64,000 nt of DNA, from positions 65,758,001 through 65,822,000 of the forward strand of contig NC_060213.1 of the NCBI RefSeq assembly GCF_021130785.1, written 5' to 3'. The notes beneath the pieces are model-generated. The model worked only from the letters and a program-made list of their open reading frames with translations, had not been told where the DNA came from and did not search any database. Positions 16,135-62,755 of this stretch are shown piece after piece (the stretch's first letter is position 1; the number at the start of each line of letters is the position of its first letter). The position numbers and the translations under genes were made by a program. The DNA is from Homalodisca vitripennis. Taxonomy: Eukaryota; Arthropoda; Insecta; Hemiptera; Cicadellidae.

Positions 16135-19100
16135 GGGATATTTCATTCCCTTTGGCCTGCTATTTATAAACCTTAATGAAAATTACTATAACATAATCTC
16201 AGATAATTAAAGAAATGTTGTTTTTTTATTATATCACATGGTGTTTGAGTTAAAAGTTTAAAAACATTAAATGTGTTATAATTTTAAAAAATTATTAATA
16301 ATATATACATAACATTAATAATATTATTAAATTTTAAAAGTATTCAAGGAATTTCATTTACTATGTAAATTGTTCTTAGCAACTATACTGATTCAGGTCA
16401 GATGTGCTAAAGAAACTCTCTCAATGGCATCTGATATCATCAGTTAATGGACAAAGGGCTTTGCAAATTACTCATCCATTCGTTGTTTACTTTGGGATGA
16501 ATCATAATTCTGAGTTGCTCTTCTCAATGCAAACACCATCAATCCAATCATCGACTATTCTCTTTGTAAATGTTGAGTAAAACTTAACATTGAAACTGAC
16601 AAATTATATTTCCTAAAATGATAAGTAGATTTTCGAGAATTTCCAAGGTTATTATAAAAAATCATTCTTTGTCTGTTTTTGGAGCCATTTATTACAAGTA
16701 AAGAAAATTTGCAGTAAAAAGACATAATATTAGAAAAAATAGGTATGTATAAGCCAGTAAAAACCAGTACTCACAATATACTTACAATAATTACTTAATC
16801 ATTAATATTTTGTGATATAACATCATAATTCTGCAACAAACAAGATTTACTAACATATATATATTACTGTGTAAAACATTGTATGTGATTAGAATAAAAT
16901 AAATCAGATCGTTCTGTTACATTTTATTGTTAACTCTATTTTGTACTTCTTTAGTCCTATTAAATTTAATATCTTCTCAGAAATTGTGTGTTGGTTTCAG
17001 TATACATTATTTCTCCAAAATATAAAAACAGTTAACCCTTTTAGTGCCAACGTCCGTATTTACGGACGTTTGAAAAACTACTGAGAAATGCCAACGTCCG
17101 TATATACGGACGTTTGAATAACTACCGAAGAATGCCGACGTCCGTATATACGGACGTTCGGAGTAAAAGTCATACCGCAATCATTTTTTAACTTGTTATA
17201 AATTTGTAGGTATACAAACAATCAGAATGAACCAATCTACATAAAAAAAATAATAATAGTAATATCGTAAGGTTAGTCAGGTGTTTAGCCATGATAGAAA
17301 TGGCCGTGGTTTTTGCATCAGACAAAGTTGTGTCAGCTGATAGTTCACGTCTAATCTCTGTGTTTGGTTGTTTGTGTTGCTGCTTCCACAGTGTTTGTTT
17401 GTTGATAAATAGTTTACTAACAATGTTTTACTAACATAAAAAGTAAACTTCAATAAAATGAAACACTCGCGATCTCCACTTAGCGAGAATACAGTTCTTG
17501 CCGTATTAGAATCAGATGATTTGAGTGATGGTGCTTTGAGTGACGAGTCTGCTGAAAGTCCGCCTAACTATAATACCTATGTACAAAAGTGTGTAATTTT
17601 TTTTATATTTTACAAAGTGTACATTATTTTTTAAGTAGAAGATAGTTTCAGGCAGTTTTTAATGGTTTCATAGTGGAAAATATTATAAGCTTTATAAAGA
17701 AACTAAATAGTGTAAATAACACAAAAAAGTGAAAATGTAACTTTCTAAAAAAATTAACATGATTTTTTTGGTTTTTGAAATATTAATCAAAACTTTTTAT
17801 GTGTGTATTCAGTTTTAATTCCTCTTTCAAGTGATAGTATGTGTTATAGTGAAATAATTTTTTTAAAGTACTATTTTTCATGTGAAACTGGAAAAATATA
17901 AAAACTGGAAGTAAAATTTCTACTTTTTTAAATTTTTTTAAGTTAATTACATTTAGAAATATAATTTGCTTTATAGTTTTTTATAAGGGAATTTATTTTA
18001 CTGCAAAACAATGAAAACATTAGGAAAACATCTCAATATTTGTAATTTTTACAATTTTTTATAAAACACTGCAAAACGGCTGAAATAGGCCTGGCATCCT
18101 TCAGTAGTATTATGTGAAAAATCACTGGCATTTCTCAGACCAACTTTTGATTTTTTTTGTCTGGCACTAAAAGGGTTAATGTAATACATTTTTGTTAAGG
18201 CCAATTTTGTAAACCAATTGATGGTTTTAATTCTAGTTCTTTTCATTAGTATCAAAGACTAAATTGTATAAAAGTACAGTTCACAAAGATACATATAGTA
18301 ATTCAGAGATGTGTATAGTTGAGTTACATTTGAAGTAGCAAAACTTTTAAATCTGGACTCGTACATATTTGAAATTGTGATAAAGTTTTTAGAATCAGGC
18401 CATAACTTTATTTAAAAATAACACTGGAATCAATTTGTATTGAATTGAGAATCAAGACTACAACTTTAGTGTTTAAAATTAATTTTTTTGTTATCTGCCC
18501 ATCCCTACTTATAATTCTGCCTTTTCCTTAATTGTCATATTTTCACTATTCCTGCATTATGACATACGACAGTATTTTTTCCTTTTAAATTATGCAGTTT
18601 TGCACTAATTTATTTGAGACATTATTACTATTGAAATTGTACTTGTTTGATAAATCACAATTTTTAATCTATATGGTGGATGTTGACTGAGTTAAATTAG
18701 TTAGATTTTTAAAGAAAAGAGTATAGGAGATAAGAAAAACATTTAATTTGGTTCTAAAAATAAATTGATCTGCCCTTGTATTCATGTTTTTTTACTCCAT
18801 GCAGCCTAAACAAGGATCATATCAAATCAAACAGAACAAAGAAGAATCTATAGGGTGTTCATTTGAAAACTTCAAACTCGTATTAAAAGACTTAATAGCC
18901 CATCAAAATTCTGTAAATGGGAGTGTATAGTACTAACTCGCCTTCGGCTCGCTGGGGGCTACGCCCCAGGCCCCCATGATGTACGCTTGCAAATTCGGGG
19001 ATAAGCGGAATTTGGTAATTGGTTAAATTCAGACATGAGGTTTCCAAATTTCATGTATCCGTTCTCGACAATCGTACGGGTCGTAATGCTTCGCTAACGC

Positions 19101-36475: not shown

Positions 36476-36837
36476 GGACCCAACAGATTTGCGGTTCTCC
36501 CCTCTCCATTAAAAGCCACCTGTGCATCAAACCAGCTTTAGGTCAATGACTCCTTCGGAATTTTAAGATAACCAGTCACGTTTATATTTGACACCCTTGT
36601 AAAGTGAGTGCACTTACCATATTATACAGGTGTAAACGAGGGCAGACAAAACACAGAATGGTGAGGATTGGGGGAGGGGTGAGAAAATTCTTTGGTTTTA
36701 CTTTTTACTCTTAATGTTTGTTCTGGATCCAGTCTATGAATGTCTTCAAATTTTATTCACAATGCCTTTTCTCTAATTTTTGTGATGTGTTCAGGTTTTC
36801 CAGTTAAAATCTGTTTTTAATATTGGTAACCAGAGTG

Positions 36838-36930
36838 GCCCATCCTCAATTGAGGGTTGTTTTGACAGGCCCATCTTCAATTGAAGGTTGTTTTGACAGG
36901 CCCATCTTCAATTGAGGGTTGTTTTGACAG
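36838..36930. repeat. 31-bp tandem repeat, three copies
   Basis: Units at 36838, 36869 and 36900, each containing the palindrome TCAATTGA and ending gggttgttttgacag, with one or two substitutions between copies. Confidence 0.92.
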
Positions 36931-39417: not shown

Positions 39418-39423
39418 TTTATT
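39418..39423 (-). terminator. Candidate poly(A) signal of the oxidase gene
   Basis: AATAAA on the minus strand lies about 120 nt after the stop of the 3'-most exon. It is the nearest such hexamer downstream of the whole array. Confidence 0.5.
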
Positions 39424-39541
39424 TCTATATAATAGTCTGAAGTTTAATATATCAAAGACTTTAGTTTGTATGCTAAAATATAAGCATTATTTTGTGTTTA
39501 ATTGATTTTCATATGTTAATAACACATTCCGGCTGACTACA

Positions 39542-39652
39542 TCACAATTTGGGCTGAACTTGAAGCAACTGTTGGACGTACTGGGCTGCATCTTTTGCTG
39601 AGCCTGGGGCCGTGGTTACACCTTGGGCTCCATGTCCGTAGTTGTGCACAAT
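39542..39652 (-). CDS. Oxidase terminal exon, 3'-most copy, ending in PKL
   Basis: After an ATTCCAG acceptor the exon reads IVHNYGHGAQGVTTAPG, then SAKDAAQYVQQLLQVQPKL and TGA (36 residues). It joins in phase 0 to the exon ending GLK at 46642. The C-terminal PKL resembles the type 1 peroxisomal targeting signal; vertebrate members of the family end in SHL or SNL. This is the only copy followed by unique sequence with a poly(A) signal, so it is probably the ancestral last exon. Confidence 0.9.
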   Translation of the reverse strand: MVHNYGHGAQGVTTAPGSAKDAAQYVQQLLQVQPKL

Positions 39653-42600
39653 CTGGAATAACAAAAATTACAATTGTAGTTGCTGAGTAGATCACAATTT
39701 GGGTCAAACTTGAAGCAACTGTAGGATGTACTTTGCTGCATTTCTTGCTGAGCCTGGGGCCGTGGTTACACCTTGGGCTCCATGTCCGTAGTTGTGCACA
39801 ATCTGGAATAACAAAAATTACAATTGTAGTTGCTGAGTAGATCACAATTTGGGTCAAACTTGAAGCAACTGTAGGATGTACTTTGCTGCATTTCTTGCTG
39901 AGCCTGGGGCCGTGGTTACACCTTGGGCTCCATGTCCGTAGTTGTGCACAATCTGGAATAACAAAAATTACAATTGTAGTTGCTGAGTAGATCACAATTT
40001 GGGTCAAACTTGAAGCAACTGTAGGATGTACTTTGCTGCATTTCTTGCTGAGCCTGGGGTCGTGGTTACACCTTTGGCTCCATGTCCGTAGTTGTGCACA
40101 ATCTGGAATAACAAAAATTACAATTGTAGTTGCTGAGTAGATCACAATTTGGGTCAAACTTGAAGCAACTGTAGGATGTACTTTGCTGCATTTCTTGCTG
40201 AGCCTGGGGCCGTGGTTACACCTTGGGCTCCATGTCCGTAGTTGTGCACAATCTGGAATAACAAAAATTACAATTGTAGTTGCTGAGTAGATCACAATTT
40301 GGGTCAAACTTGAAGCAACTGTAGGATGTACTTTGCTGCATTTCTTGCTGAGCCTGGGGCCGTGGTTACACCTTGGGCTCCATGTCCGTAGTTGTGCACA
40401 ATCTGGAATAACAAAAATTACAATTGTAGTTGCTGAGTAGATCACAATTTGGGTCAAACTTGAAGCAACTGTAGGATGTACTTTGCTGCATTTCTTGCTG
40501 AGCCTGGGGCCGTGGTTACACCTTGGGCTCCATGTCCGTAGTTGTGCACAATCTGGAATAACAAAAATTACGATTGTAGTTGCTGAGTAGATCACAATTT
40601 GGGTCAAACTTGAAGCAACTGTAGGATGTACTTTGCTGCATTTCTTGCTGAGCCTGGGGCCGTGGTTACACCTTGGGCTCCATGTCCGTAGTTGTGCACA
40701 ATCTGGAATAACAAAAATTACAATTGTAGTTGCTGAGTAGATCACAATTTGGGTCAAACTTGAAGCAACTGTAGGATGTACTTTGCTGCATTTCTTGCTG
40801 AGCCTGGGGCCGTGGTTACACCTTGGGCTCCATGTCCGTAGTTGTGCACAATCTGGAATAACAAAAATTACAATTGTAGTTGCTGAGTAGATCACAATTT
40901 GGGTCAAACTTGAAGCAACTGTAGGATGTACTTTGCTGCATTTCTTGCTGAGCCTGGGGCCGTGGTTACACCTTGGGCTCCATGTCCGTAGTTGTGCACA
41001 ATCTGGAATAACAAAAATTACAATTGTAGTTGCTGAGTAGATCACAATTTGGGTCAAACTTGAAGCAACTGTAGGATGTACTTTGCTGCATTTCTTGCTG
41101 AGCCTGGGGCCGTGGTTACACCTTGGGCTCCATGTCCGTAGTTGTGCACAATCTGGAATAACAAAAATTACAATTGTAGTTGCTGAGTAGATCACAATTT
41201 GGGTCAAACTTGAAGCAACTGTAGGATGTACTTTGCTGCATTTCTTGCTGAGCCTGGGGCCGTGGTTACACCTTGGGCTCCATGTCCGTAGTTGTGCACA
41301 ATCTGGAATAACAAAAATTACAATTGTAGTTGCTGAGTAGATCACAATTTGGGTCAAACTTGAAGCAACTGTAGGATGTACTTTGCTGCATTTCTTGCTG
41401 AGCCTGGGGTTCCCGTGTCCATAGTTGTGCACAATGTGACAGTAAAATAGTGATTTATATTACAATTTCTTTTTAGTTGTCTAGTTTAACCCTTTGGACA
41501 GCAGTGCCCGAGGTTGCTGCCCTATCCGTCTATATAATAATCACTTTAGACCAAAAATTTGAAAAAATTTTATAAATCGGAAATATTTTTAATTTTTAAA
41601 ATGGTTACATCTTATATTTGTTCTGGAATTACATAATTCTTTTGAAAAATTATTAACAAATTCTTATAATAAGCCTAAAGTATAAAAGGAGAGTAACTAA
41701 AAAACAAGCAGCTCTGTCAAGATCATTAGTGATACTAACTATAAAATTGATAAAGATAGTTCTTATTTACTTCAAAACAAAACCAGTTGAATCTTTAATA
41801 GCTTGTAAATAAAGCTAAAAATATTTTTTTCCTAGATGGCTGAACAATTGGACTTTGGCGGTTATTGCATGAACCTCAGTAGTCCAATCAATCAGACATT
41901 GGTGTTCAAAGAGTAATAATTTCTTAAATTCCCCACACCTAACATCTTACTAAGCATAGTAAATAAAAAATAGACTACAGTCATATTTTACTTATGTAAG
42001 CCTAGAAACTACTCCATCATACATATAATATTGAATATACTTTAGTTATTTAAGAAAGTTTCCATTACAAGGATATGTACATGGTTAGCTGAAGTTTACT
42101 TAGGATTTATTTTTCTGTCTGGCGGTTTGTTTTATACATGTAAGAAAAATATGATCTCCGAAAAATATATTCCATCATTTTAACCCTTCAGATACTCTCC
42201 AATTTCGGAAACCCCCACCAGAACTAGTTGGTTGACAATTAATTTCTTTCTTAGAAGAAATTTCTCCGTTGATATCAAGAAAAGCGGGTTTTGTGCTTAT
42301 ACGAAACAAATTGGCTTTCTGTTCCTGTACTTATAAGTCTTAAGCTCAAATTGATTCCTAGATATTCAAGGTTAAAATTCACACATAATCAAAATTCAAT
42401 TCATCAATAGTGGAATGTTATAATTTGGAAAAAAGGAAATAGAGTGATAATGCTCTGTGTAATTTCCTTTTTTAAAGTTTTATTATTGTCAATGAATAAT
42501 TTGAAAGGATAACAAGGTTTTAGTCATTTGTAACAAAAACAATTACAAGGATTGGAATCTTCTTCTTCTTCAGGTGTAAAGGCATAAATTTTAGCATTTA

Positions 42601-45600
42601 CATGAGTTTTTCATAAGAGATACCAAATGAGAAGTATAACATGTGAAATTTTCTCTTCCATAATGATGCACATACTCTGTAGTTCCTATAATCCTCGTCT
42701 CTTCTTGTGAACAGTGTTTTGATGACAAGAAAGGATGAAATGTATACTTTGATATGACAACCTTACCAGGTTACACCACTGACTGAATTGGACTCGCCAG
42801 AAAGATCAAGATTCACGCCTACCAAAGTAAATGCATACGGTTCACCTAGTGAAGCTATTCCAGGGAGTTTTCAATAGATCCTCAGCAATTTAATTCTGAT
42901 CCCTTCATTCATGATCAATGAAAGACACATTGAATGGTCATATCAGAGATGATCTTTCCACAAGCATTTCTGAGCTGTCTCAAACCATGAATGTACAAGA
43001 CAATAAGTGCAGTACATCAAGATGTGGAAATAAGCACATCTTTTTTAATAATTCATTGCTTAAATCAAATATCTTAATTCCTCTTGTTCAAAGAGAAAAA
43101 ATAAACAGTTGGATATAGCTAAGCAATGACTTAACTCACAGCCGGATTTAAATGGAATTCTTTGCACTTTGACTATGCCATTTGATGAACAGAATACAAC
43201 AGATTTAATTTTACCCATAGAATATAACTGACAATTCACCACTCAGGCATTGTCAGTGGTGAATTGTCCATTAAAGATCATTAGCCACTGACTGTGAAGA
43301 TGCTTCCTCAGGTAACTATGTCCCATAATCAGCCCCATAACCCGAGAAAACATTAATCTACTTAGGGGGAGAAGGTCAGATGCTACCCGGGGGGAATTTG
43401 AGTGCAAGACCATTTTGCTCATTATCAGACCCCTGTGCAGCCTCCACCTTCTCTCATGTTCATCATGAACCCACTTTGAGACAGCCCTAAAGGATTCACA
43501 CCTAGAAATACCACAGAACGGTCGAGGAACCGTCATGTGAAACGCTGAGCCAAGTTGGTCAGGGCATCAGCTCTTTCATTCCTATGACCAGAACCCAACA
43601 AACATCACATATTGTTGATTCTGCCAAGGGAAGAAACAACTTGATAGCAATCCCAGTCAAGTTTGGAGTTGAACACACAACAGTTCAACGCCTGCCTCTA
43701 ATGCTGCCTGGCTATCTTTGAAAATGGTAATCATCTTACTACGATACCACAGACGAAGATTCTCACGAGCACATTCCATCATGGCTGCAACTTCTGCTTG
43801 AAAGACTGTGGGATAAGGACCCATAGTGGCCATCAGCTCCTACATGGTCTCACTCTCACAATTCCAGCACCTCTACCACTTTTTGTCTTAGAGCCATCTA
43901 TGAACCATTCTAGCTCTGCTGGTTTCCTTCCCTCCGACCAATTCTCCCTAGAAGGTATAACAATCCTAAAGGGTTTGTCTAAGGAAAATCTTGTGGCATC
44001 TAATCAGAGATCATATGCATAGCATTTCCCTGAATCAGGATGCTAATTCTGTAGTGCCCCTGTTGCAGCCCGAGGCCGGCCAAAGTCCTGCCTGATAAAC
44101 ACAGTAGGCATTCCTCCTGGCCATAGCCTAAATGACAATGTTCAGGAAGGGCGAGATTGAGACAACAGAGTAGAGCTGCATCCGGTAAACTTGGAAAAGC
44201 CCCAGTCATATAGCTAGGCAAGCCATCCTTTGGATGCTAGCCGAACTAGCCACCGCCATCTTGGCCTACATTTTTGGCCATTATACAACAACCCCAAACA
44301 TTAATGCAGGTCTAACCACGGAGATATAAAGCCAGTACAAAAGCCTCGGCTTAAGTCTCCAAGATCCCCCTATCACACGTGTCCAGATGGAATCCCCAGT
44401 TCAGGACCCTATCAAGGACTACGACCAGGTACTTAATCTTGGACTTAAATTCAATGAAAGAGCCTTTCAATAAGAATGGACCAATACCCTCCAACTGACA
44501 CCCTCTTGTTAAGGCAACCAAGGCAGTCTTGGTGGGATTGACACAAAGGCCCTTTCCATTACATATATTAATATTGAACACATTGTCATACAATTGTCAG
44601 GGCCATATTTAAGCTTAGGCTTGCACCTAAGGGTCCCTACCACAATTACAAAATAATGTCACTGGTCATATTTTATTATCGTTGATAGTGCGTTCATTTT
44701 TTTGTACTTCATTGCCTCAACCAATAGATACCAAACTGAGCGCTTGAAACAAGTAGGATCTGAAAAAGTTGTTCTTTTACCAAAAAGGACAAGAACAACA
44801 CAATGGTCATGTTGAGATGATGCTACTAAAGCTCTTTTGCAAGGATATCAAGAAATAAAGCTGGCACTACTGAAAATTTCAGAAGACATGGAGGATTCAG
44901 ATTGGAAGACATGGGACATCATGAGTGGTTGCTCTGGATTTAATTTGAAAAATAAACAAGTTGGGAGACAGGACTGTATGGCGTTTTTTTTTATGATATT
45001 TTGGGTGAAGTAAACAAAACTAGTGAATCTTTACAAACTCCTTGAATCGACATGAACACAGCCGCAATTCATTGTTGAAATCTTCAAGAAGTCTGATTCA
45101 ACGTAAACAGGAAATTTTCCGAGGAGTATGAGCAGAAAGCTATCAAATTGACTGACTGTTTAGAATATGAAGTTGAAGTTACATAAAAATGGAAAACAGA
45201 TGTACGTTTAGCTCTTCTTGACTGTGTACAAGCCCGGAAGTTAACCTAACCTCATCTTATACATTACGGATCCAAAGCTTCATTACAGTCATAGATGAAC
45301 TTTAAGGTACATTGACAAAGAGACTTCAAGCCTACAAACTTATCGATACAAGATTTGGGTTCCTTAACAAATCGGACATGCTCTCTAATGATGAGGCGTT
45401 AGCAGCAAGCAAATCGTTAGTAGACAGCTACAACAAAGATCTACACGAAGAATTGAGCAACAAAGTTTTACAAGTCAATAATGTTTCCAACCAGTTTCAA
45501 AATGAATATGAGAAAAGTGAAAAGCACATTAGTAAAGAAGGGTTGATGTATCAACTTATGATAGAAAACAACGTAAAAGATCGATTTTCGATGGCATTAA

Positions 45601-48600
45601 GAATGTACCTTTCCTTGATGGTGACTAATTGCTCTGCAGAAAGATCATGCTGAAGCTGATCAAGAGCAGACTCCAGACCTCTATGTCAGAAGACGGGCTA
45701 ATCATTTTGGTCTTGTTTAGTATAGAACACAACACTCCAAGATGAGTCAACCATGAGGACATCATAAACGGCTTCATTGCAGAGAAGCTTAGACGGAAAA
45801 CATCAGCAAGTGACTAAAGTTGCACTGGGAGTGGGTCAATTTAGTGACTGATCTGCACTAAATTTAATTTATAGCTAAAGATTTATTCACAAGTACTTAA
45901 TATTGACTTGTACTTTCCTTTTTCACTTACCAATGTACATTCAGTGTTAAAGTTATGTTTACCTTTGTGTACTTCTCTTTATCTAAAATAACCTTAGTTA
46001 TAAATTTACAATATTAAAGTTATCTAATGTCTTAAATTTTCCCATCCAAATGGTACAAACATTTTTTTAATTGACAAAGCATTAATATTTGAATGCCAGA
46101 CCATACAGAATATTTAGAGCAATTTCCCTTAAAAGTCACCATTTTGAAACTAATTTTTTTTTTAATTTTCATAGAGAGAGCGTCCTTGGACCCCCTCCTC
46201 CCTCTCATTGAGAAGTATTCCATATCCCCCAAACCATGAACCCAGGACCTGCACCACAGGTGAAGCAAAGGGGCCTGTGTTTTCTAAATCCTACTCTGAC
46301 AGTGTTGTCAAACATATTGTTAATAGTGATCATGTGTAATATACATAAATTTCAATTTTAGTGCTTGCAACATAAATAATTTAAATTACTTTTAACCCAG
46401 GCTCCAAAGTATTTGTACAGAAATATTCAAGCTGTGTTTAGTAATGATTTTAATGTTTTTTAATTCCATCTGCTAAAAAGCATTTATCTCCACCTCTATC
46501 AAAACAAGCTCATTTGACAGTTAATATGTCACAATTAATTCTAAATATTATTAGTAAAGTAAATTTTACCACATTTAATTACGATGAGTATAATGTGTAT
46601 TGTTAAAACTAAATTTTAATTTCTATTATCTACTTTCATACCTTGAGACCGTCTCGTATTTCTGGCTCCAAGCGCACAGACTGACGGTATGGCCGAAGTC
46701 CTGCCCACTCCCAAGCGACTGGTGCATTTTCTAACTCGGGTAATATCGCAGTGCAGCGAGACATGATACCCTTAGAGTCATGAGCGCTAATGGAAGTGTT
46801 CCAGACACCTAATTGTTTGGTGCCACCCAGAGTGACTAGTCCGTCACAGTTCGGTATGATGTAGGATAACTCCGACGTTAAGAGGAAACGGTCAATGTTC
46901 GGTGCCTTCACCTATTACAGAGTCAAGTAAAATAATTTTATAAAGTATTGGTCTAACTTATGAATGTTTTGTTAAAATTACATTAATATATTGTTATTTA
47001 CGTAATATTACTCGAAACCCCTTTCTTCAAAGTCTACATGTACTGAAAGAGTTAAATTTTGTAATATTTCTCTATTCCAACTAATGTAAAGGTTTCTATT
47101 TAAATTAACATTTTAAAGAGGTATTCATAAATCTGCAATAGTTCCTAAACTTATTCTCAATTCATAACTATGATAAACATGCTTACAGAAAGTGTAAATG
47201 TAATTTATGCAGAGCATATTTGTAAATATACAAATAAAAGTAAATTCCCTAAATGTTATACTTTGTTGTAGTTTATTTCTATTACTGTGAAAAAATTATA
47301 ATGCTTTTATTGTATCAATTTATTTTTTACATGGCTTGATACATTTTCGTATCTTGTAATTATTTTAAATTTCCTATCTCTCTCAGTCAAGTGTTGACAA
47401 ACTCTTCTTCATTTTCAGAGAACTTTCCTCCTAAATTCAGATTTGTATTGTAAAAATATAATAGTTGTAAAATACAGAATCAAGACTGAGAGTCCCGATC
47501 TCCGTAATTATTTCAGTAAATGTGCTCTTTCTTATACACTAAGGCACAGATCTGGTGCTATAGAGCATATAAAAGACATCTCCATATTTTCTTTTTCAAA
47601 CTGCAGTGTTGCCAACCTTAAAATTACAACTTCTCTTTCTTCTCTCATGCCAAACAGGCTTCTTATATTCTAGAGCAGCCTGCCAGAAAATAGTCCAATG
47701 GTAGCTGGTGCATCTGAATCCCCCCCTACAACCCACATAATTTTTACAACTATAAACTCAATTTGGTACGGTACACGAGTTTTATATAATTAAATAGTTT
47801 ATCTCAAAATCCTGTTTTTTAAGATTATTTTCAAACCCACACTTTACATATAACCAATTTTTCCATTATGATTTCACATAAATTTGTGTGCTGCTGCAGA
47901 AAATTTAAATAATTTCTTGGATTCTCAGGCTCATTTCACTATTGATAGGCAAACCACTTTATTCTTTATTACGAACCTGTAATTCATTTACTCTGAAATA
48001 TAACACCATTTGATAATAACTTACTCCTAATTTTACTACTATATACCAGTGTCGTTACTAGGAATTGACATTAGGGGATGAATCTGATGAGGAGCACACC
48101 ACACCTGGGGTATGGAATAAACTTAAGTGTGAATAAATTAGACAAGCCTAATTCAAAGTGAATATTTAACTGCATTATTTGAAAAAATGGATTGCTGGTA
48201 TATGTATAATTTTCAACATTTTTAGGGTTTTTGGGGAATTCTATCACCTTTATCCCTCCCCCTTAGCTACACTATTACTAATACTGTATTAAACAAGGAT
48301 TTTCAACAGGCTGGAAACATTATGCCTAAAAAATTAAATACTGGCACACATTTAGTTAAATTGTGTGTTTGGCATTTAAAAATTGGTGCATAAATACATG
48401 TATTTAGTAGCAAATTTGGGAAAACTACATATTATTTCAAATAATAACGCAAGAAGCAATTTATATTAATAAACATGAAATTTACAGGCAAATTTCAAAA
48501 AAACTTTAAATCTTTTGTTCTTGTTAGTTACCTTAATTATCTGTCCTCGTAAAGGTGCCACTACGTCGTCTCCGCAGAGAAACTTAGCTTGTAATCCTGT

Positions 48601-51600
48601 ACAGTTGACTACAACATCGTACCTGCCTTTCAGCTCCGATAAGTCTTCAACCTTCTTCTTCATTATATGACCTCCTTTTGACTTTATCCTGAAAAAAACA
48701 TCATTCTTTGGATGGTTCACATAAATGTTTACTTTGTTATTTTGTAAAATTATAGAGTGTATTACCTTTTATTCCTGTAGTATATGAGCAATATATACAC
48801 TTGCAACGTTCGTATTAACCAGTCTCTTTTATCAAAATTGTCTCTAAACACACAAACATTGAAATTATAATAAAAACAACAATGAATTGGTATGTATTTG
48901 AAATGAGATGGCTCATGAACCAAACAAGGAGAAATGTGCTCTTTCCTAAATACTATAAATCAAAAATGTTTTATTTTCATGGTTATAATTAGCAGAAATT
49001 GCTATGTACGTGATGGAATTTTATATAACCTTAGTTTAATAATAAAATATTTACATGAAATATGCCAATTTAATTGAAAAATAATGGATGCCATTACATT
49101 TTGTTCCACCTTACTTTAATTAAATCGTTCATTAATCATTGCTGAAATCTTAAGAGCTATTCAACCAAATACTGTAGCATTTGAGATAGAAATTCGAGTT
49201 ATCTCATTGGTGGTCATAGTCATTTGTTCGCCCTTTTAATATACAGTGCAACCTCATTAAGTCGGACTAGCCGGGCCCGCGGCCGATCCGACATAACGAA
49301 AATTCGGATTAAGCGGAGAATGTTGAAAAAATAAAGAACACACCCTGTTTAAACAATAAAATATTTGTTTATTACATAAAAACACTTAAAATACACATCT
49401 TGATTAATTGTATAATACAGTTTACAGTTTAAGTTTTCTCTAAGAATTTTGTTCATTTGAGTTGCGTCAGCATGTAATTATTGAGTTCTACAAACAGTCT
49501 ACTGATAAAAAAAACTTCTGTCCCACGCTCGGCAGTCTGAGTGGACGACAAAAAGCTAATTTAAACATTTTCAGAACCGATCTGGGTTACCCAGAGATCC
49601 GACATAAAGGAGTCCGACTTAACGAGGTTGCACTGTAGCTCTATGACAAAATGGACTTCATACCTTAAATACTAATCAACAAATTCATTTCAATTCACTA
49701 ATTTACAAAGATTTGAATATTGATTCCTCCAGTAACCACTGCATGCTGTAGAATTACTTGGTATACCATTTATAAGTGTTACCCAGGTTAAGTGTTAGAG
49801 AGGGCTTCTTAGCCCTAACTTCGCCTGGTAAAATAAGACATTCTTTACTTTACTTTTTTACTTTATAAAAAGGATGCATGTAATGCCATTGTTACACTAT
49901 AGGGGTTAAGCCGCAAGTAGCAACTAGTAAATAATGATAGAAGTCTGTTCTCTGAAGTATGGTGCTTCAATATATTCCTGCCACTCTGGTTTACTACTAA
50001 TTTTGGATATTTATAGTGCTTTATAACAAGCAAAAATAAACTATAAGATAAAGTCAATAACATTTGGAAAGTTGCCAATTCGTGAAATTGGTTCAATCAA
50101 TTTTGCAGTGCTTTCAGGCCATGAAATATCTGAAATAAACATCTAGTTTGAAAAGCCTTTGACTGCTTTGTATATTTGTGAGCAACTACTGATTTGGTTA
50201 CACTATGTCTCAGGGCAATAGAATAATATTGGCATCCAGTGTCAAGTCCATGGGCGTACCCAGCAAGGGCCTACTGCCCCTTCCCCTTAAGAAGCAAATC
50301 AATAATGGAAAAATTATGAAGTGATAATGAAACAAAATCAGATAGGGCGATGGCAAATAATCAACTGTCAACCGTACTGAAATGGTGTTATAGATACATA
50401 TAATATTCTTTAAACTCTAGTTTAATTTATCTTTACCTTCTAAAATGATAGAACCTGAATGACCATTGAATGCTCCCAACCCCATTTTTTATGTTTTGTA
50501 GGTCTATGGCCAAGCCAGTGTGATATAGCACAGTTGTTGCCTATTTTTGAGCGAGCAATCTTCTTCTACTGTTATACATAATGTCACCTATTACTTGAAA
50601 AACATTTTCTGTTTATTAAGACGATAACATTTTTCTGTGAAAACCTTTTGACTCTTGAATATTAGGGTGATCTCAATGTCATCTTCTGATGATAAAGCAC
50701 ATTGTAAAACATGGTAACAAAATGGGCTAAAATAGTTAGTAATAGTTAAAAAAAGTTATTAGTAAATTAAATAAAACTATAGACCTCTTTTAATTTGTAT
50801 ACAAATGTATTAAGCAACAACTAATATTAATGGATATATTTGGTATTTAACAAAACACTTAGTCATATATACACACAGTTGTATACTTGTAATGAATTTT
50901 TCTAAAACCAATTACTGTATATTAATTTTAATTTCATGGAATGTAATTTGATAAAGAAATAGTCTTTCATGGTGTTTCATGCTACAATTTTAGGATTTGC
51001 AATAAACAAAAAATTGAAAAAATTCAATCTACTAAATAACTTGGAAATTGCATTAATCACCTTGTGGTTTTTGATGTAATATTACGTTTATAGCGACTAC
51101 GTAAAGATGTGCTACTGACATAATATTACACATGTTCTGTATTATTCTGTTGTCAACCATGAAATTGTGCAAGAAACATTTATATGACAATCGTACAAGT
51201 AGTTATGGTGTATTTCAAAGATAACTTCCTAGATTCTCTGTCATGACTGTTTGTACTTTGGTAAGTTCACAGTAATCGTGCAGTGCAGGCAGCTACCGAA
51301 TGTTGTTGCATGTCACCCGTCGTAGAGTATTTTTTTATTATTAATGTACATACATACAATACATTTCTAGGTATTAATGTATCATGGAAATATCCAACAC
51401 ACAAATAGATGATTAGCTTTATTTGCATGATGATGACATGGACAAAGGATGATGATAGGGAAAAGGACTTAGTGGACAGGTATAAAAAAGTAAAAAACAT
51501 TTTTGAAAAAAAGACATTAAAAGTAACTGTTTTACATAAGTATATATCTAAACTCTACAAATCTGTTTCTGTATAAAACAGCAAAAAATCAGCAAAACAA

Positions 51601-57600: not shown

Positions 57601-60600
57601 AACAATTTGGTTTTTTTGTTTTTTCTGTCAAACAAAAATTGACTGAGATATGATTGTTTAAAGAGCGCGTGGCAGCGCAATCACAGCCTCTCTTAAGCCC
57701 TTTAACCCTTCACCGTTTGAGAAAAGGTTTTTTACTATATATTGCAATAAAGGATGTTGTAGCTCTCTTAATTACCTTTACAATGGTTTTTAATAAATTG
57801 TGATAGCATGAAAATTGTAGGAGTTATGGTCCAAAAACTTATCATATTTTATCATATTTCTTTCTACTTAGTAACTGAACATTTCGGAGTGTGAATATTT
57901 GGAGCAATGTGAAAGTACGCAATAAAATAGAGACCCAAAATTATTGTAATGTGTATATATATACATAATATGGCTCATATATTTTGGAAACGTAGGCATG
58001 AATACATACCAACGTTCCTATATGTATATATAACACATTTGAGTGAATTTTATATAATTTGTTAATATTTTATTCAATAAATGGCAATTTTTTACTCTAA
58101 ATTAAATTATTTTTAATTATGTAATAATATATATTTACTGTTTTAATTTAGGGGTAGTTTTAAGGGTAGAAAAGCTTAAGAATATGATAATCATTTTCGA
58201 GAGTGTGGAATAATATTTAAATCCTTTTCATTTTATCAAAAAAAAATGTTTATCAATTTTTTATCAAGGGGTAGTTTTCAGTCAAGGGGTTGAAAGGGGG
58301 TTAAAAATTTGATAATTATTATAGAGAATATAAAATATTACTTACTCTATACTTACATCTTTTTATGTCATACCAAAGTATTTTTTTGTGATTTTTTCAA
58401 TTTAGGGTTTGTTTGCAAGGGTTTTAAGATTTTTTAAGGGGTTGAAAATGATTTTAATATGAGGTAATTGTGTTAGAAAACACTTTACAATTTCACCACT
58501 TATTATTAGACATGTTTTCTAGCGATAAAATTGCTCAATGTCAATTTTTCCATTAAGGGGTTGTTTACACCCCTTAAAAATAATAGGCGGAGTTTAGATC
58601 ATTTTCACTTTTGAAGTTAAAGGTAAGATGAGCCTAATTCCAAAATTTCATGCAAATCGGTTCACAGTAAAAAAATTCTTCTTTAAAAGAAATATATCTT
58701 TAAAATGAGACATCTCCCTTAATTTCACAACTCACAATAAACATGCATGAGGCAAGAACGTAGCCAGGAAAAAATTTGGGGAGAGGGGGTCAAGACCACT
58801 GAAACGTTCTCGTAGTGGACAGAAAGTAAGGGAAGTGCAGTCAACTACTCATTTCCAATCTTGTTCCTCGACCCAATTCAATGTTGAAAACGATCTGTAA
58901 TAATAATTGTTTGCTAAAAAGTAATTGAAAAAATTGAAAATTTCGGGGTGTCCGGACCTCCTTGCTGGCTACGCCCTTGGCATGAGGTTTAGCATTGATC
59001 TAATGGGGCTGCAATCAAGATGGCTGCTGGTACTACTGGCTCTGAAGTAAATATGTAGACTTCTAATGAAGCAAACCCTTACTGTTTAAAACTACATATA
59101 GTTCCTAACAATGTTTATCTTCCAAATGCAATGCTTATTGCTTTGTTTTGCCTTTGTATTTTTAATTTAAGGCAAGACAATTTTTTCAAGGAAAAACGTT
59201 GATATATTTTACGTCTTTTACTCAATTCTTAGTATAGTATTCCAAATATAAATAAATTTAACATTCCACAACATAAATTTTAATTTTTTTTTAATTGGAT
59301 GTATTATAATGCTGTGATTTTGTTTGATGCCTTCTCTGACCACCTCAGATCAGAAATAAATTTAAGAAAATTCAAAAATAGTTTGTCTTAATATAATGTG
59401 AAAGATTTCATTAACGAAAAACATGTAGATTTAGATTTACGCATATTGACACATGCCAATGCTTGTAATCGTTGAACACCAATAAATAATGATTTCATTT
59501 AATTTGATAACACAATAAATCTCTGTAATCTAAGCAATTATTCAGCATTATTGGGTCAAATAGTTGCTCTCATATTAGAAACGCTGCTATGAAGATTAGA
59601 ACTATAATCTCTTGCACATTATCAATCAACCTTATCTTGGACTGGGGAGACATTGTCAGATTGTATCCTCAATCAGTTTCTTTGCATGCACTATTTTACC
59701 TTCACTTGGTCCAATTATCAGTTCAGTTTTATCTTCATTGCACCTTAGATTGCTATTTTGACCTCGGCAACTTGCTATATAGCTCCAACCACTCAACAAA
59801 CAAACAAAATGAGTATCTTTTACAGGAATAATAAGTACAGTATTACTTTTACCATTACAATCCTCCACATATAAAATGCACAGTTAAAGTAAACTGAAGT
59901 GCAGTTAGACTAACAAGTGTAAGAACTAACCTCTCTATGAGAAAAGGTAGGAAGGTTCTGCATCGAATAAGAAGAGTTCTCATGAAGGTACCGTACTTCC
60001 AGTTTCCCAGGTAATGGAGCATCTCTTGTCGTGTAGCAGGGCGATGTTCAGGGACAGCACCATCCATTAAATCATTCTGGTACCATATTTTGAATATTTG
60101 AGTAATAGTACAATATATTCTTTTATGGATAAGAACAATAAATAAAATATTAACGTATTTCACATGTTTTATAGAAATCATTTGATCGCTTCCATGCTGG
60201 TGTATTCAATATTAATAGGCACAGACATGAGGGAAGTCCTGTGGTTATGGATGACACTAAATAATGACTCATATGAGGAGATAAAACAAGTTGTTCATCA
60301 TGATCTTCTTAGCTAGGGAATGTTAATATCCTAATACAATTTAATATCATTCACTGGCTGAGATGTTACTCAAAGAGAGTGAGCATAACCACTTTAAATT
60401 ACGCTCGTACAAGTTATGAGCAGCAAATATTTTGTCTTTTTTTTAGGTATCAGCAGTTTTACATAGGTTATACAAATTTTAAAAGATATCAACTATTTTC
60501 CAATTTTTTATAACAATTCCAATGGTAAACACTTTAAAGATACGCTTGCACAAGCCAGGAGCGCCAAACATGTCATAGTTGAGATTTGTCAGTTGTGTGT

Positions 60601-62755
60601 TGCTCCTGGCTTCTGAAAGAGTATCTTTAAAGTGGTCAAGCTCACTTATGCATTGACGGATTTCATTGATTACGGTTGGAATTTTAATAACATTTTCAAA
60701 ATAGTTGGTACCTTGTAAATTGTTTATAACTGATGTAATACAGCTGATGCCTATCAAAAGACAAAATGATTGCTGCTTCTAACTTGTGCAAGCGTATCTT
60801 TAAAGTAGTTGTGCTCACTTATGCCTTGATGGATTTCTTTGAAACTAGTACCGTTGGAATTGCAATAAAATTCTTCAAATAGTTGGTGTCTAGTATATTT
60901 TTTGTAGTTATACTGGTTTTTTTTTAGTTATTTGACTAAAAATCTTCATCAGATGCCATTTTGTGGAATAATTATAAAGAAAATAACACTTTATTTCTTT
61001 TTTAAATTTTCCTCTTACCTTTTCAAACCTATGTGCCAAATTTGGTTAGTAGAAAATGGCGCCGCTAGCAGCTAAACAAAGTTGAAATAGGAAAAAAGTT
61101 ATTCTTTATTTTTAGTTAGAATCACACATTACATCTGAAAATGCATAGCCAGCCCAACCCTTATTACTGCCAAAAAGTCAAGAATAAATCAGTAGTAGTA
61201 GTATTTTTTAAAAGTTGACCTAAAAAGATAGTTCCAACCGTGGTGCAGTGTTAAATTTTCAGAGGGCAGCGCAGCGCTCCGTTGTTGTTGGCGGCAGCCT
61301 TCTAAATTTGCACCCTCCTTGCTCTTGCACTCCTGTCAACCTCTAGGTACACCACTGCAAAGACTTTTAATTTCTGAGGTATTATTTTAGAAATTTGAGC
61401 TTGTGCCACTGAGAAGAGTATTCTGTATTTTAACACCCATCTCCAAAATGAAACCATTTTGATTTTTTATTTTACATTTAATTATACTAATGCCACATCT
61501 CGTAAAGTTACAAAACAACAATATGTAAAAAAGTTAATTTACCAGCTGATGTTAGGGGTAAGGAGCCCTCTCTAACCTGGGGATCAACGGCTTAAAGGTG
61601 ACTTCCAAACCACCACCAATGGCTGGGCAGGCAGGCTGCTTGGAAGGACAGAATCCCTTAGCGGTCATCCATCCAAGCAGCAGCCACGCTCAACGTTGCT
61701 GCTCTTGTTGTAAATGTATCTTGTTGATATAGAATTTAAAAGTTTTACAACAGTTTAAAATTTATGTTATATAAAATTCTGAAATTCTGTAGATATTCGT
61801 TTATAGGTGAAACTGTGAGCCAACATGCTATCCTTTTCTAATAAGCTTAAATATGGATTTTTTAATTCGTTATTAATAATTAAAGGTACAGTTAAATTCA
61901 ATCCATTTCATTCTGAACAAAAACCTGACTTTAGATTATAAAATTTGAAACAACATATTTCACACTAAATATATTTGAATGTGATAGTTTCAACCAACCT
62001 AAGAATTTTTATTTGTATTCAAGCCAATTATCTTTTAATACAAATGCATAGTTAATCTTTTCAATATAAGCCGAAAGTGCTTTAATTTTGCAAATTAATT
62101 TATTCTTGCACCAACTCATTCAAAACTACTTCTAAAAGCCAATGTTCTGTCTGAAAACAAGAAGATTTTGCTTAGATTTTATTTGTCATTTATTATATAA
62201 TAATTAAAAAATAAAAGAAACTTGTGCATTGCTAGTTGATTTTTGATTCTTATTTACTTCTTCCTGCTTAGTTCCTTTTGTGTCTTGATGTTCTAAAAAT
62301 AATGAAATGGCTTCCACTTACTTTTACTTCGTCTTCTGAAATTGTCGACAGCACATAGCCAGAAATTTCAAAAACTCCACAATCTTGGTTCAAGAAGTCT
62401 TCATAATATTTATAGGAATATTTGGTCCACTCCCTGAAAAACATTTATTTTTAAACTGTGCACATGCAAGATAACTAAGTAATGTAAAGTTCTTATTGTC
62501 TGAACCCATACACCAAACTTCAACAGCTGTTAAGGTTTATCTCTCAAGCTCTTTCAAAAAATGCTTTATTAAAAATATAATATTTTAAATAGCAAAATAA
62601 AATATAATATGTACTTATAAGTATAATATTCAAGATCATCTGACTTACTTTGCACTGGAAGGGGTAGGTCCTTTAAAGTTTGATTCTGGGTAAAATAAAC
62701 CAGCAGCTCCATCACTGGTCGTTTCAGTGTTGAATTTGTCTGCTATAACTGTTAC
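39542..62755 (-). CDS. D-amino-acid oxidase family flavoenzyme, probably D-aspartate oxidase (six exons; N-terminal exon outside window)
   Basis: The gene encodes an FAD-dependent oxidase that converts D-amino acids to 2-oxo acids, ammonia and hydrogen peroxide, usually in peroxisomes. Exons at 62649-62755, 62322-62433, 59931-60076, 48532-48688, 46642-46911 and 39542-39652 join in phase to 300 residues. Landmarks in order are FNTETTSDGAAGLFYPES (1-35), VVVNCTGLQA and RGQIIK (exon 4), SYIIPN, GLVTLGGTKQLG and GLRPYR (exon 5), and HNYGHG (exon 6). The terminal block fits the DAO family signature as I know it: two aliphatics, H-N-Y-G, then G-A-x-G and later G-x-A. The GLRPYR arginine is the substrate carboxylate-binding residue in the family. 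TLGGTKQLG and GLRPYR look more like D-aspartate oxidase than D-amino-acid oxidase. The usual length is about 340-350, so only the GxGxxG FAD segment is missing, beyond base 64000. The terminal exon is multiplied (see 39653-41435). Confidence 0.93.
39704..39802 (-). CDS. Oxidase alternative terminal exon, representative upstream copy (no PTS1)
   Basis: This is a 33-codon exon including TGA, in the same phase as the 3'-most copy. Its first 19 codons are identical to that copy. The later part has nine nucleotide differences: five amino-acid replacements (K-R, D-N, Q-K, V-I, Q-L), one silent change and CAG to TGA. The codons after the TGA are still CCC AAA TTG TGA, that is PKL and stop, so readthrough would restore the tail. 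Ten further copies repeat every 150 bp. Coding status depends on splice choice, which needs transcript data. Confidence 0.7.
   Translation of the reverse strand: MVHNYGHGAQGVTTAPGSARNAAKYILQLLQV
41354..41435 (-). pseudogene. Degenerate first copy of the oxidase terminal exon
   Basis: It begins IVHNYGHG but lacks 17 bp after GGACACGG, so the frame shifts. The acceptor AG is replaced by TCAC. It cannot serve as the other copies do. It marks the 5' edge of the array, about 50 bp from a piggyBac-like terminus at 41486. Confidence 0.8.
41486..41520. mobile_element. Isolated piggyBac-like left terminus
   Basis: TTAA followed by CCCTTTGGACAGCAGTGCC and a semi-palindromic GC-rich tip, like the ends of the complete elements in this window. 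No matching right end was found before 42180, where another TTAACCCTT occurs, so this is partial or coincidental. Confidence 0.4.
41521..43240. other. Oxidase intron, unresolved
   Basis: AT-rich intron. 42180-42240 begins TTAACCCTTCAGATACTC and is another possible single piggyBac-like end. Frames in 42900-43120 are not recognisable. Confidence 0.4.
43240..44597 (-). pseudogene. LINE fragment: RT C-terminus and RNase H
   Basis: Minus strand, 5' to 3'. KGLCVNPTKTALVALTR and FKSKIKYLVVVLDRVLNW (44360-44590) are the end of the RT palm and the thumb. EWFIDGSKTKSGRGAGI (near 43900) and IFKDSQAALEA (near 43700) are RNase H motifs with the catalytic acids. A C-terminal tail runs to 43245. The presence of RNase H points to an I, R1 or Jockey-type lineage. 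Several stops. The 5' side is cut by the hAT element at 44598. Confidence 0.82.
44598..46298 (+). mobile_element. hAT-type element with transposase remnant
   Basis: The left end CAGGGCCATATTTAAGC and the inverted right end CAGAGTAGGATTTAG resemble the CAGGGCCGGATTTAG termini common in this hAT group. The flanks acaattgt and acagtgtt match only partly, so the 8-bp duplication is old. Plus-strand remnants at 45300-45780 include LQAYKLIDTRFGFLN and the hAT dimerisation block LSLMVTNCSAERS followed, after one frameshift, by KSRLRTSMSEDGL. It sits inside the LINE fragment and interrupts it. Confidence 0.72.
46299..46641. other. Oxidase intron, nothing recognised
   Basis: AT-rich intron adjoining the donor site of the exon ending at 46642. 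Confidence 0.6.
46642..46911 (-). CDS. Oxidase exon with the substrate-binding arginine
   Basis: This is a 90-codon exon (acceptor TAATAG, donor GTATGA, phase 0 at both ends). It contains SYIIPN with the conserved active-site tyrosine, LVTLGGTKQLGVWN, SRCTAILPELENA, and GLRPYRQSVRLEPE with the substrate-binding arginine. The next intron runs 7 kb to the 3'-most terminal exon and contains the exon array. Confidence 0.94.
46912..48531. other. Oxidase intron, nothing firm
   Basis: AT-rich. The open stretch at 47443-47670 (plus) resembles a weak LINE C-terminus (RSGAIEH, SLSSLMPNRL), but I cannot support it. Confidence 0.4.
48532..48688 (-). CDS. Oxidase exon with VNCTGLQA and RGQIIK
   Basis: The acceptor is TTTTTTTCAG and the donor GTAACT. 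The 157-nt exon carries DVVVNCTGLQAK (FAD adenine-side motif) and PLRGQIIK. Both are highly diagnostic of the DAO family. Confidence 0.93.
49244..49635. mobile_element. Tigger/pogo-like MITE
   Basis: TA duplications flank inverted ends CAGTGCAACCTCATTAAGTC and CAGTGCAACCTCGTTAAGTC. The ends resemble pogo/Tigger termini (CAGTnnAACCTCGnTTA). Subterminal 'gatccgacataa' occurs near both ends. It is 392 bp long with no coding capacity. Confidence 0.88.
49793..49850 (-). repeat. Short interspersed repeat, copy A
   Basis: On the minus strand it reads ttagggctaagaagccctct followed by ctaac, closely matching 61553-61590 on the plus strand. It looks like the end of a LINE- or SINE-derived family. Confidence 0.5.
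49851..53615. other. Oxidase intron, nothing recognised
   Basis: AT-rich. Holds a 24-bp tandem duplication (52664-52687 and 52688-52711). The fragment 'catgggcgtacccagcaagg' near 50250 may be one hAT-type end. Confidence 0.5.
53618..54230 (+). mobile_element. mariner element, 613 bp, N-terminally deleted
   Basis: TA-flanked inverted repeats start CAGGGTGGCGCAAAAGTCAC at both ends and match over about 36 bp. The remnant starts with DKYLDILQNYAVPGL, then LYFQHDGAPPHYATAVRDYL (second catalytic aspartate), then, after small shifts, DMPSRSPDIRPMDFFLWG and a C-terminal RRVCNSIPERLQRCINEDGK. The helix-turn-helix and first aspartate are deleted. Confidence 0.92.
54290..55015 (+). pseudogene. LINE reverse transcriptase C-terminal fragment
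   Basis: LTWDEHVDHVLRKMSNRIIY, then LIQSHVSYGTSIYG and LLHQKRGLRIIFN, typical of the post-palm region of CR1- or L2-like non-LTR elements. A decayed tail follows (YCLPDLLNLESSSA). An AATAAA is near 55005. It lies directly after the mariner. Confidence 0.8.
55016..56559. other. Oxidase intron, nothing recognised
   Basis: AT-rich, no interpretable coding sequence or terminal repeats. Confidence 0.5.
56561..58722. mobile_element. Unclassified DNA element with long terminal inverted repeats
   Basis: The outer ends GGGAGATGT (56565) and, inverted, AAGGGAGATGTCTCATTTTA match in opposite orientation. A second inverted block of about 80 bp follows: 56741-56820 (ctgtgaaccg...ttcaaaagtgaaaatgat) against 58585-58670. 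The interior is very AT-rich with a GC-rich hairpin at 56824-56862 (ccaccctgggggtggttgcc). No transposase was seen. Confidence 0.7.
58753..58979. mobile_element. hAT-type MITE with 8-bp target duplication
   Basis: GCATGAGG occurs exactly at 58745-58752 and 58980-58987. The inverted ends are CAAGAACGTAGCCAG and CAAGGGCGTAGCCAG. The length of 227 bp and the 8-bp duplication fit a non-autonomous hAT element. Confidence 0.88.
59931..60076 (-). CDS. Oxidase exon with the YGTFMRTLLI segment
   Basis: The acceptor is TACCAG and the donor GTTAGT. The exon encodes 48 codons plus two nucleotides, including NWKYGTFMRTLLIRCRTFLP, which corresponds to the family's WF-x(2)-L-x(4)-YL helix. The acceptor has a weak pyrimidine tract, so the exact 5' edge is less certain than the rest. 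Confidence 0.82.
60391..60900. repeat. Nested inverted and direct repeats in an oxidase intron
   Basis: A perfect 24-bp inverted pair starts ACTTTAAAGATACGCTTGCA at 60530 and reads in reverse at 60782-60805. A direct duplication of about 95 bp ('tatctttaaagt...gttggt') occurs around 60620-60710 and 60794-60890. A weaker copy is near 60391. It may be a fold-back type element. Confidence 0.75.
61553..61705 (+). repeat. Short interspersed repeat, copy B
   Basis: GC-richer block containing ttaggggtaaggagccctct then ctaacctgggg, related to 49793-49850 on the other strand. No coding sequence. Confidence 0.5.
62322..62433 (-). CDS. Oxidase exon WTKYSYKYYEDF
   Basis: The acceptor is TTTTTCAG and the donor GTAAGT. 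It encodes EWTKYSYKYYEDFLNQD, then GVFEISGYVLST, and ends in EDEVK at phase 0. Confidence 0.88.
62649..62755 (-). CDS. Oxidase exon with the TTSDGAAG motif
   Basis: The acceptor is TTCAG and the donor GTAAGT. The exon encodes VTVIADKF, TTSDGAAGLFYPES and FKGPTPSSA, with two nucleotides of the next codon. The T-T-x-D-x-A-A-G block binds FAD in the family. Confidence 0.9.

What the first reader, a model, noticed from the sequence alone, without database searches (positions are those of the whole stretch)
39542..41435. Twelve tandem copies of the last exon of a D-aspartate oxidase-like gene, each with its own splice acceptor
The array looks like a satellite, but one minus-strand frame reads the DAO-family C-terminal signature (IVHNYGHG ... 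APGSA) right after a TTATTCCAG acceptor in every 150-bp unit. The preceding exon ends in phase 0 with the donor that would join it. Copies are almost identical (three substitutions seen among 11). I know of tandem internal exon clusters used for mutually exclusive splicing, but not of a tandem terminal exon array in this enzyme family. Possible consequences are many competing 3' splice sites, long repeat-bearing 3' untranslated regions, or dosage control through splicing.
Basis: partly seen in the sequence, partly recalled or inferred. Interest (0 to 1): 0.95.

Follow-up and report, generated by a model that had tools for sequence, protein, structure and literature searches.

The report
Twelve competing last exons, one gene
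In what is likely a sharpshooter leafhopper genome, the last coding exon of a D-aspartate-oxidase-like gene is repeated twelve times in tandem, and only the final copy encodes a likely peroxisome address tag, so the choice of splice site would decide where the enzyme is predicted to go.

Summary
Twelve copies of the last exon of a DAO-family gene, spaced 150 bp (exon starts 41302 to 39652, minus strand), each follow the same splice acceptor; a degenerate 13th (41435) lacks it. The eleven upstream copies (nine identical) end ...QLLQV-TGA, followed by CCC-AAA-TTG-TGA. Only the last reads ...QLLQVQPKL-stop. PKL is a peroxisomal-targeting (PTS1) type tripeptide; 92 of 113 tails counted in relatives end in a strict PTS1. 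The gene is complete: exon 1 lies 3.7 kb beyond the window, and all exons are open and in phase (327 aa with the last copy, 323 with an array copy). Exons 2-6 encode exactly the residues of a Homalodisca vitripennis record whose model ends in intronic sequence instead. One locus was found in the 2.3-Gb assembly; a paralog has one last exon ending SKL. No poly(A) hexamer tested lies inside the array, so the copies are alternative 3' splice sites of one nested terminal exon. Most likely they compete, diverting most transcripts to a PTS1-less, probably cytosolic enzyme. No transcript data were available; use of any copy is inferred. Tandem terminal-exon clusters are known (Drosophila pip); this is an unusual variant.

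The parts
62649..62755 (-). exon 2 (VTVIADKF...), donor GTAAGT, ends in phase 2
   Evidence: tblastn with relatives, splice sites and phase
62322..62433 (-). exon 3
59931..60076 (-). exon 4
48532..48688 (-). exon 5
46642..46911 (-). exon 6, ends DGLK in phase 0 before donor GTATGA
   Evidence: 90 of 90 residues identical to P0122
44354..44554 (-). intron stretch that the public H. vitripennis model J6590_015512 uses as last coding exon
   Evidence: 66 of 67 residues identical; no Pfam family
41303..41435 (-). degenerate 13th copy: no AG before it, 17-bp deletion; its 3' half is identical to the array type
39653..41302 (-). eleven 150-bp units, exon starts 41302, 41152, 41002, 40852, 40702, 40552, 40402, 40252, 40102, 39952, 39802; each codes IVHNYGHG...QLLQV then TGA, followed in frame by CCC AAA TTG TGA (PKL stop)
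39542..39652 (-). last copy of the exon, reads IVHNYGHG...QLLQVQPKL stop (PTS1-type tail)
39418..39502 (-). first poly(A) hexamers after the array: ATTAAA starting at 39502 and 39448, AATAAA at 39423

Best explanation
The array is eleven near-identical copies plus one final distinct copy of the last coding exon of a D-aspartate-oxidase-family gene, all behind the same splice acceptor and ahead of the nearest poly(A) hexamers, so the twelve acceptors likely compete for the single donor of exon 6, and the winner would decide whether the enzyme ends in LLQV or in the likely peroxisomal tag PKL. Shown: copies, acceptors, frames, stops, poly(A) hexamers. Inferred: the array acceptors are used; being 11 of 12 locally near-identical sites they take most transcripts (11/12, 92%, if all were equal); the 323-aa product stays in the cytosol while the 327-aa product enters peroxisomes. 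The array probably grew by unequal crossing-over or slippage of a unit made of about 30 intron bases (polypyrimidine tract and AG), the exon and about 16 bases of 3' UTR; copy number would then bias the ratio of the two forms and the length of the 3' UTR (about 0.07 to 1.8 kb).
For: Complete open gene: exons 1-6 with GT/AG splice sites and matching phases, 327 aa with the last copy, 323 aa with an array copy. The array and its degenerate neighbour hold the only convincing IVHNYGHG-coding sequence in the window by tblastn with ten relatives (output cut inside the array), so the gene needs one of the copies. The 100 bases before the acceptor are identical in 11 of 12 copies; the twelfth (40552) has one change at -20. 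Their pyrimidine score equals the best of the gene's five internal acceptors tested (12 of 17). No poly(A) hexamer of 8 tested inside the array. Relatives' tails end in PTS1: 92 of 113 strict, 102 of 113 by a looser pattern of mine (116 proteins new, 3 without readable tail left out; the tails of the first search were not counted). The paralog in the same assembly has a last exon ending NSKL. PKL has nearly the apparent affinity of AKL (1.915 against 2.544, PMC6770196 Table 3, passage; that the partner is PEX5 is recalled), and -PKL is described as functional in human, yeast and Penicillium (PMC3709128, passages). The UniRef record of Graphocephala atropunctata (P0123; that it is a sharpshooter and stems from a transcriptome is recalled) ends ...VKQLLQA, at the array's stop position. 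Array and last copy each carry own changes against six relatives, as two exon lineages would.
Against: No RNA evidence: besides P0122 no near-identical record of this gene is among the hits listed by the protein searches (120 of 122 and 120 of 331 hits listed, none in the third). Terminal-exon definition could favour the copy nearest the poly(A) signal (terminal exon 176 nt against 326 to 1826 nt if the first hexamer is used). Six of seven codon differences between array and last copy change the residue or make a stop, so coding constraint on the array is not shown. P0123 could be a 3'-truncated record, and 11 of 113 tails, P0123 among them, match neither PTS1 pattern, so PTS1 loss occurs without any array. 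A competing-RNA-structure device was not found (longest perfect complement of the unit in the intron 9 bases; 95 of 100 shuffled units do as well).
Confidence: 0.5

Rival explanations
1. The array is inert: the spliceosome uses only the last acceptor, next to the poly(A) signal, and the eleven upstream copies are an exon-derived minisatellite in the intron.
For: The last copy makes the shortest terminal exon (176 nt) and alone keeps a family-type tail, PKL; array copies differ from it by six residue or stop changes and one silent one, as expected without constraint.
Against: In 11 of 12 copies the 100 bases before the acceptor are the same as before the last one, and the first 58 exon bases likewise in 11 of 12, so nothing local marks the array copies as weak; they come first in the transcript; the Graphocephala record ends at the array's stop position.
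Confidence: 0.25
2. The first intact acceptor (41302) takes nearly all splicing, the remaining eleven copies are just 3' UTR, and the gene has in effect lost peroxisomal targeting; copy number has no consequence for the product.
For: Proximal sites are met first; the Graphocephala record lacks a PTS1; a paralog ending SKL exists that could serve peroxisomes.
Against: The last copy still encodes a good PTS1-type tripeptide, which would be expected to decay if never used.
Confidence: 0.17
3. Readthrough: the array copies' TGA is leaky and translation continues into CCC AAA TTG TGA, adding xPKL, so every copy can make a little peroxisomal enzyme.
For: In all 11 units the triplets after TGA spell PKL and then a stop; the same bases stand in the degenerate copy.
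Against: The described short leaky context is UGA followed by CU (PMC4207609, section 6 read); here it is UGA CC. The PKL codons are shared with the last copy and so need no other explanation than descent.
Confidence: 0.04
4. The copy number is an assembly artefact and the genome holds one or few copies.
For: Nine identical units invite mis-assembly; no reads were available to check.
Against: The array lies inside a 148.6-Mb sequence, with no N in the window, contains private variants in two internal units and a distinct copy at each end; the exon is found at this one locus plus a paralog.
Confidence: 0.04

Closest known systems
Drosophila pip and PGRP-LC tandem terminal-exon clusters
   Same: Tandem duplicated terminal exons or 3' variable regions chosen by alternative splicing (PMC9013439, section 6 and passages).
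   Different: There the copies are described as mutually exclusive, with competing RNA structures reported; here units are nearly identical, 150 bp, share one downstream poly(A) region, and no competing structure was found with the simple test made.
Dual targeting by alternative splicing: Yarrowia malate dehydrogenase, pumpkin hydroxypyruvate reductase
   Same: One gene whose splice choice yields peroxisomal and cytosolic forms; in Yarrowia the forms differ by a PTS1 (PMC3798809, section 5 read).
   Different: In Yarrowia two introns differing by four nucleotides are used; here eleven PTS1-less sites would compete with one PTS1 site. Use is shown there and not here.
Readthrough-derived peroxisomal isoforms (LDHB, MDH1, fungal Tpi1)
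   Same: A PTS1 follows in frame after a UGA (PMC4207609, passages and section 6).
   Different: Context UGA CC, not UGA CU; PTS1 here explained by descent from the full-length exon.
Insect D-aspartate oxidases (PF01266)
   Same: Last exon begins at the same codon as in the paralog on C2; same YGHG signature and tail length.
   Different: GAQG instead of GGYG in the loop, PKL instead of SKL, and the repeated last exon.

Membership tests
D-amino-acid/D-aspartate oxidase family (PF01266) | Pfam DAO domain above gathering score, with GxGxxG start, GLRPxR and HNYGHG signature | tested here: met
   PF01266 113.5 bits (cut-off 27.9) and 112.2 bits for the array form, both run without exon 1; GAGIVG in exon 1, GLRPYR in exon 6, HNYGHG in exon 7; motif names recalled
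D-amino-acid/D-aspartate oxidase family (PF01266) | oxidase activity on D-aspartate | not testable with these tools
   best solved relative is a D-aspartate oxidase, 6rkf, 6.7e-54; no assay
Tandem terminal-exon cluster (pip, PGRP-LC kind) | homologous tandem copies of a terminal exon with their own acceptors | tested here: met
   12 of 12 units; a 13th copy lacks the acceptor
Tandem terminal-exon cluster (pip, PGRP-LC kind) | each copy a separate terminal exon with its own poly(A) site (recalled as a feature of the known cases) | tested here: not met
   0 of 8 hexamer types inside the array
Tandem terminal-exon cluster (pip, PGRP-LC kind) | choice by competing RNA structures | tested here: inconclusive
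   longest perfect complement 9 bases, not above shuffles; only perfect pairing was tested
Tandem terminal-exon cluster (pip, PGRP-LC kind) | alternative use of the copies in mRNA | not testable with these tools
   no transcript data
Dual peroxisome/cytosol targeting by alternative splicing | alternative products differ by a PTS1 | tested here: met
   met for the predicted products: PKL in 1 of 12 copies, absent before the stop in 11 of 12
Dual peroxisome/cytosol targeting by alternative splicing | both products made and differently located | not testable with these tools
   needs cDNA and localisation
Dispersed satellite DNA | unit found in arrays elsewhere in the genome | tested here: not met
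   6 of 6 matches of a 300-base query lie in this array (the tool warns that very common words are skipped and counts are lower bounds)

The most novel reading that the evidence does not exclude
A minisatellite made of last exons works as a splice-site rheostat for protein address: by out-numbering the single PTS1-bearing copy, n near-identical PTS1-less acceptors set the cytosol-to-peroxisome ratio of a D-aspartate oxidase at about n to 1, and heritable changes in copy number retune that ratio and the 3' UTR length without touching the coding sequence.
Probability: 0.22. Interest if true: 0.82.

Novelty: new variant of a known kind. Interest (0 to 1): 0.62.

Why it matters
If the array acceptors are used, this is a natural titration series: twelve splice sites, eleven of them identical for 100 bases upstream and the twelfth with one change, that differ chiefly in order and in distance to donor and poly(A) site. 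It would let one measure directly how position alone governs 3' splice-site choice, a long-standing question. It would also show enzyme location set by repeat copy number, a kind of change that populations could vary quickly. Even if inert, it shows how a public gene model can lack an essential exon when that exon sits in a repeat.

Tried and rejected
Dispersed satellite: not supported, this locus only. Recursive splicing or micro-exons inside the array: best internal donor-like sites score 6 of 9, and the AAG/GTGTAA site would give a 31-base, frame-shifting exon. Competing RNA structure between unit and intron: not above shuffles. Structure after the TGA: one fold of 80 bases, -8.5 kcal/mol, no control run; not used. 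Homology between the sequence upstream of the degenerate copy and the unit's intron part: 180 of 2000 shuffles score as high, so no claim. The 640-aa minus-strand reading frame across the array: follows from a 150-base unit being 50 codons; a 100-aa stretch of it had no relatives. Relatives or array copies in other collections: 35 stretches of genome contigs matched a pattern from exon 6 but none encodes a relative; an exact 32-base array pattern gave none in viral contigs. Haplotype copy number: no second copy of the locus among the matches in the assembly. Literature on arrays of identical terminal exons: I saw no such case in the listings. Structure prediction was not run; it would not separate the explanations.

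Full report
On the minus strand twelve head-to-tail copies spaced exactly 150 bases start at 41302 to 39652. Each begins, after TTGTTATTCCAG, with ATTGTGCACAACTACGGACATGG..., reading IVHNYGHGAQGVTTAPGSA (unit 40102 with two changes), the C-terminal signature of the D-amino-acid/D-aspartate oxidase family. The eleven upstream units comprise three sequences, nine of them identical. A further copy at 41435 has lost its AG and 17 bases.

The gene. tblastn with ten relatives and inspection of splice sites give exons 2-6 at 62755-62649, 62433-62322, 60076-59931, 48688-48532 and 46911-46642, all with GT donors and AG acceptors and matching phases. The window is G000:C7:65758001-65822000 of a 2.30-Gb assembly. 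Fetching the next bases of C7 gave exon 1, MSVAVVGAGIVGLTTAAHIQDLLPNVK, starting 3.7 kb beyond the window (window position 67721 if numbered on) with a GTAAGA donor. The start codon is inferred from the match to P0123. The reading frame is 327 codons with the last copy and 323 with an array copy. Pfam DAO matches both forms (113.5 and 112.2 bits, cut-off 27.9, run without exon 1). The best solved relative is a D-aspartate oxidase, 6rkf.

The species. A protein search (331 hits at 1e-20 or better, the best 120 listed) gave as best match J6590_015512 of Homalodisca vitripennis (P0122). All 264 residues of exons 2-6 occur in it unchanged. Segments of its model that lie outside these exons differ by a few residues (70 of 77, 30 of 32, 66 of 67 identical; two more, 25 of 25 and 27 of 27, do not), so it comes from another haplotype, assembly or a very close species. 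I infer H. vitripennis or a near relative. That model ends with residues from 44554-44354, inside our intron, instead of the exon with the YGHG signature. The genome paper says that gene prediction ran on the masked genome (PMC8496328, abstract and sections 9 and 15 read), so the array may have been masked there; I could not check whether that assembly holds it.

What distinguishes the copies. The last copy is identical to the first unit for 107 bases upstream and the first 58 bases of the exon, then differs at 9 bases in seven codons: R/K, N/D, a silent A, K/Q, I/V, L/Q and TGA/CAG (array first). So the array reads ...SARNAAKYILQLLQV-stop and the last copy ...SAKDAAQYVQQLLQVQPKL-stop. Of 113 readable tails among the 116 proteins new (P0122-P0237), 92 end in [SAC][KRH][LM], 102 in a looser pattern of mine, and 11 in neither. 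Three proteins without the motif were left out, and the tails of the first search were viewed but not counted. Human DAO ends SHL and is listed as peroxisomal (PMC6770196, table passage). There PKL has an apparent affinity of 1.915 against 2.544 for AKL (same units; the receptor, PEX5, is recalled). PMC3709128 states that -PKL was shown to work (passages). The 11 array copies thus lack a tail that most relatives have. The paralog in the same assembly (C2:70252425-70265470, 39 to 62% identical by exon) is followed on its strand by one matching last exon in the 30 kb read, near 70272821, ending NSKL; that it belongs to the same gene is inferred.

How old the two types are. Against six relatives, three of them unnamed, the array has its own changes: D to N (D in 5 of 6) and V to I (V in 5 of 6). 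So does the last copy: R to K (R in 5 of 6) and Q where 3 of 6 have K and none Q. Neither is simply the ancestor of the other. The degenerate copy carries the array type. The Graphocephala record P0123 ends ...VKQLLQA, at the same codon as the array's stop. If complete, a PTS1-less end is shared by another sharpshooter or arose twice. The identity of the first half of the copies points to recent unequal exchange or conversion (inference).

How it most likely works. None of eight poly(A) hexamers occurs inside the array; ATTAAA at 39502 and 39448 and AATAAA at 39423 follow the last copy. The units are therefore alternative 3' splice sites of one terminal exon: 176 nt for the last copy and 326 to 1826 nt for the others, if cleavage follows the first hexamer. 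Their 3' UTRs would be about 0.07 to 0.14 kb for the last copy and 0.23 to 1.8 kb for the others; the mean 3' UTR reported for this species' gene models is 811 bp, so these lengths are not out of range. Eleven of twelve sites are identical for 100 bases upstream and one has a change at -20; order and distance must largely decide. If all were equal, 11 of 12 transcripts (92%) would lack the PTS1. The expected effect is an enzyme mostly in the cytosol, with a minor peroxisomal form, and a ratio that depends on copy number. This is inference: no RNA was seen. The main rival is that proximity to the poly(A) site makes only the last copy work.

Novelty. Tandem terminal-exon clusters exist (Drosophila pip, PGRP-LC; PMC9013439) and so does dual targeting by splicing (PMC3798809). 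I saw no described array of near-identical terminal exons with one odd copy bearing the targeting signal in the listings of the searches. These cover open-licence papers only. I file it as a new variant of a known kind.

Noticed in passing
11103-11426 and 11862-12464, minus strand: Two separate open stretches match Pfam Viral_helicase1 (PF01443, 1.2e-10 and 2.2e-4): likely a broken virus-derived element. Described only.
   Followed up: partly
8032-10791, minus strand: Open stretches that look, from memory, like pieces of a non-LTR retrotransposon; no Pfam family for the three stretches scanned.
   Followed up: partly
44354-44554, minus strand: Used as the last exon of the public model J6590_015512, though the family's C-terminal exon is in the array: a public annotation error likely worth correcting.
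   Followed up: yes
G000:C2:70252425-70272940 (L013, L026, L028-L030): Paralogous D-aspartate oxidase gene, 39 to 62% identical by exon, with one last exon ending NSKL in the 30 kb read.
   Followed up: partly
39537-41459, minus strand: A 640-aa frame is open across the whole array in another reading frame; explained by the 50-codon unit.
   Followed up: yes
17045-17158: 44-bp unit repeated 2.6 times, holding a palindrome CCGTATATACGG.
   Followed up: no
36837-36930 and 3429-3499: Short arrays of 31-bp (3 copies) and 30-bp (2.4 copies) units.
   Followed up: no
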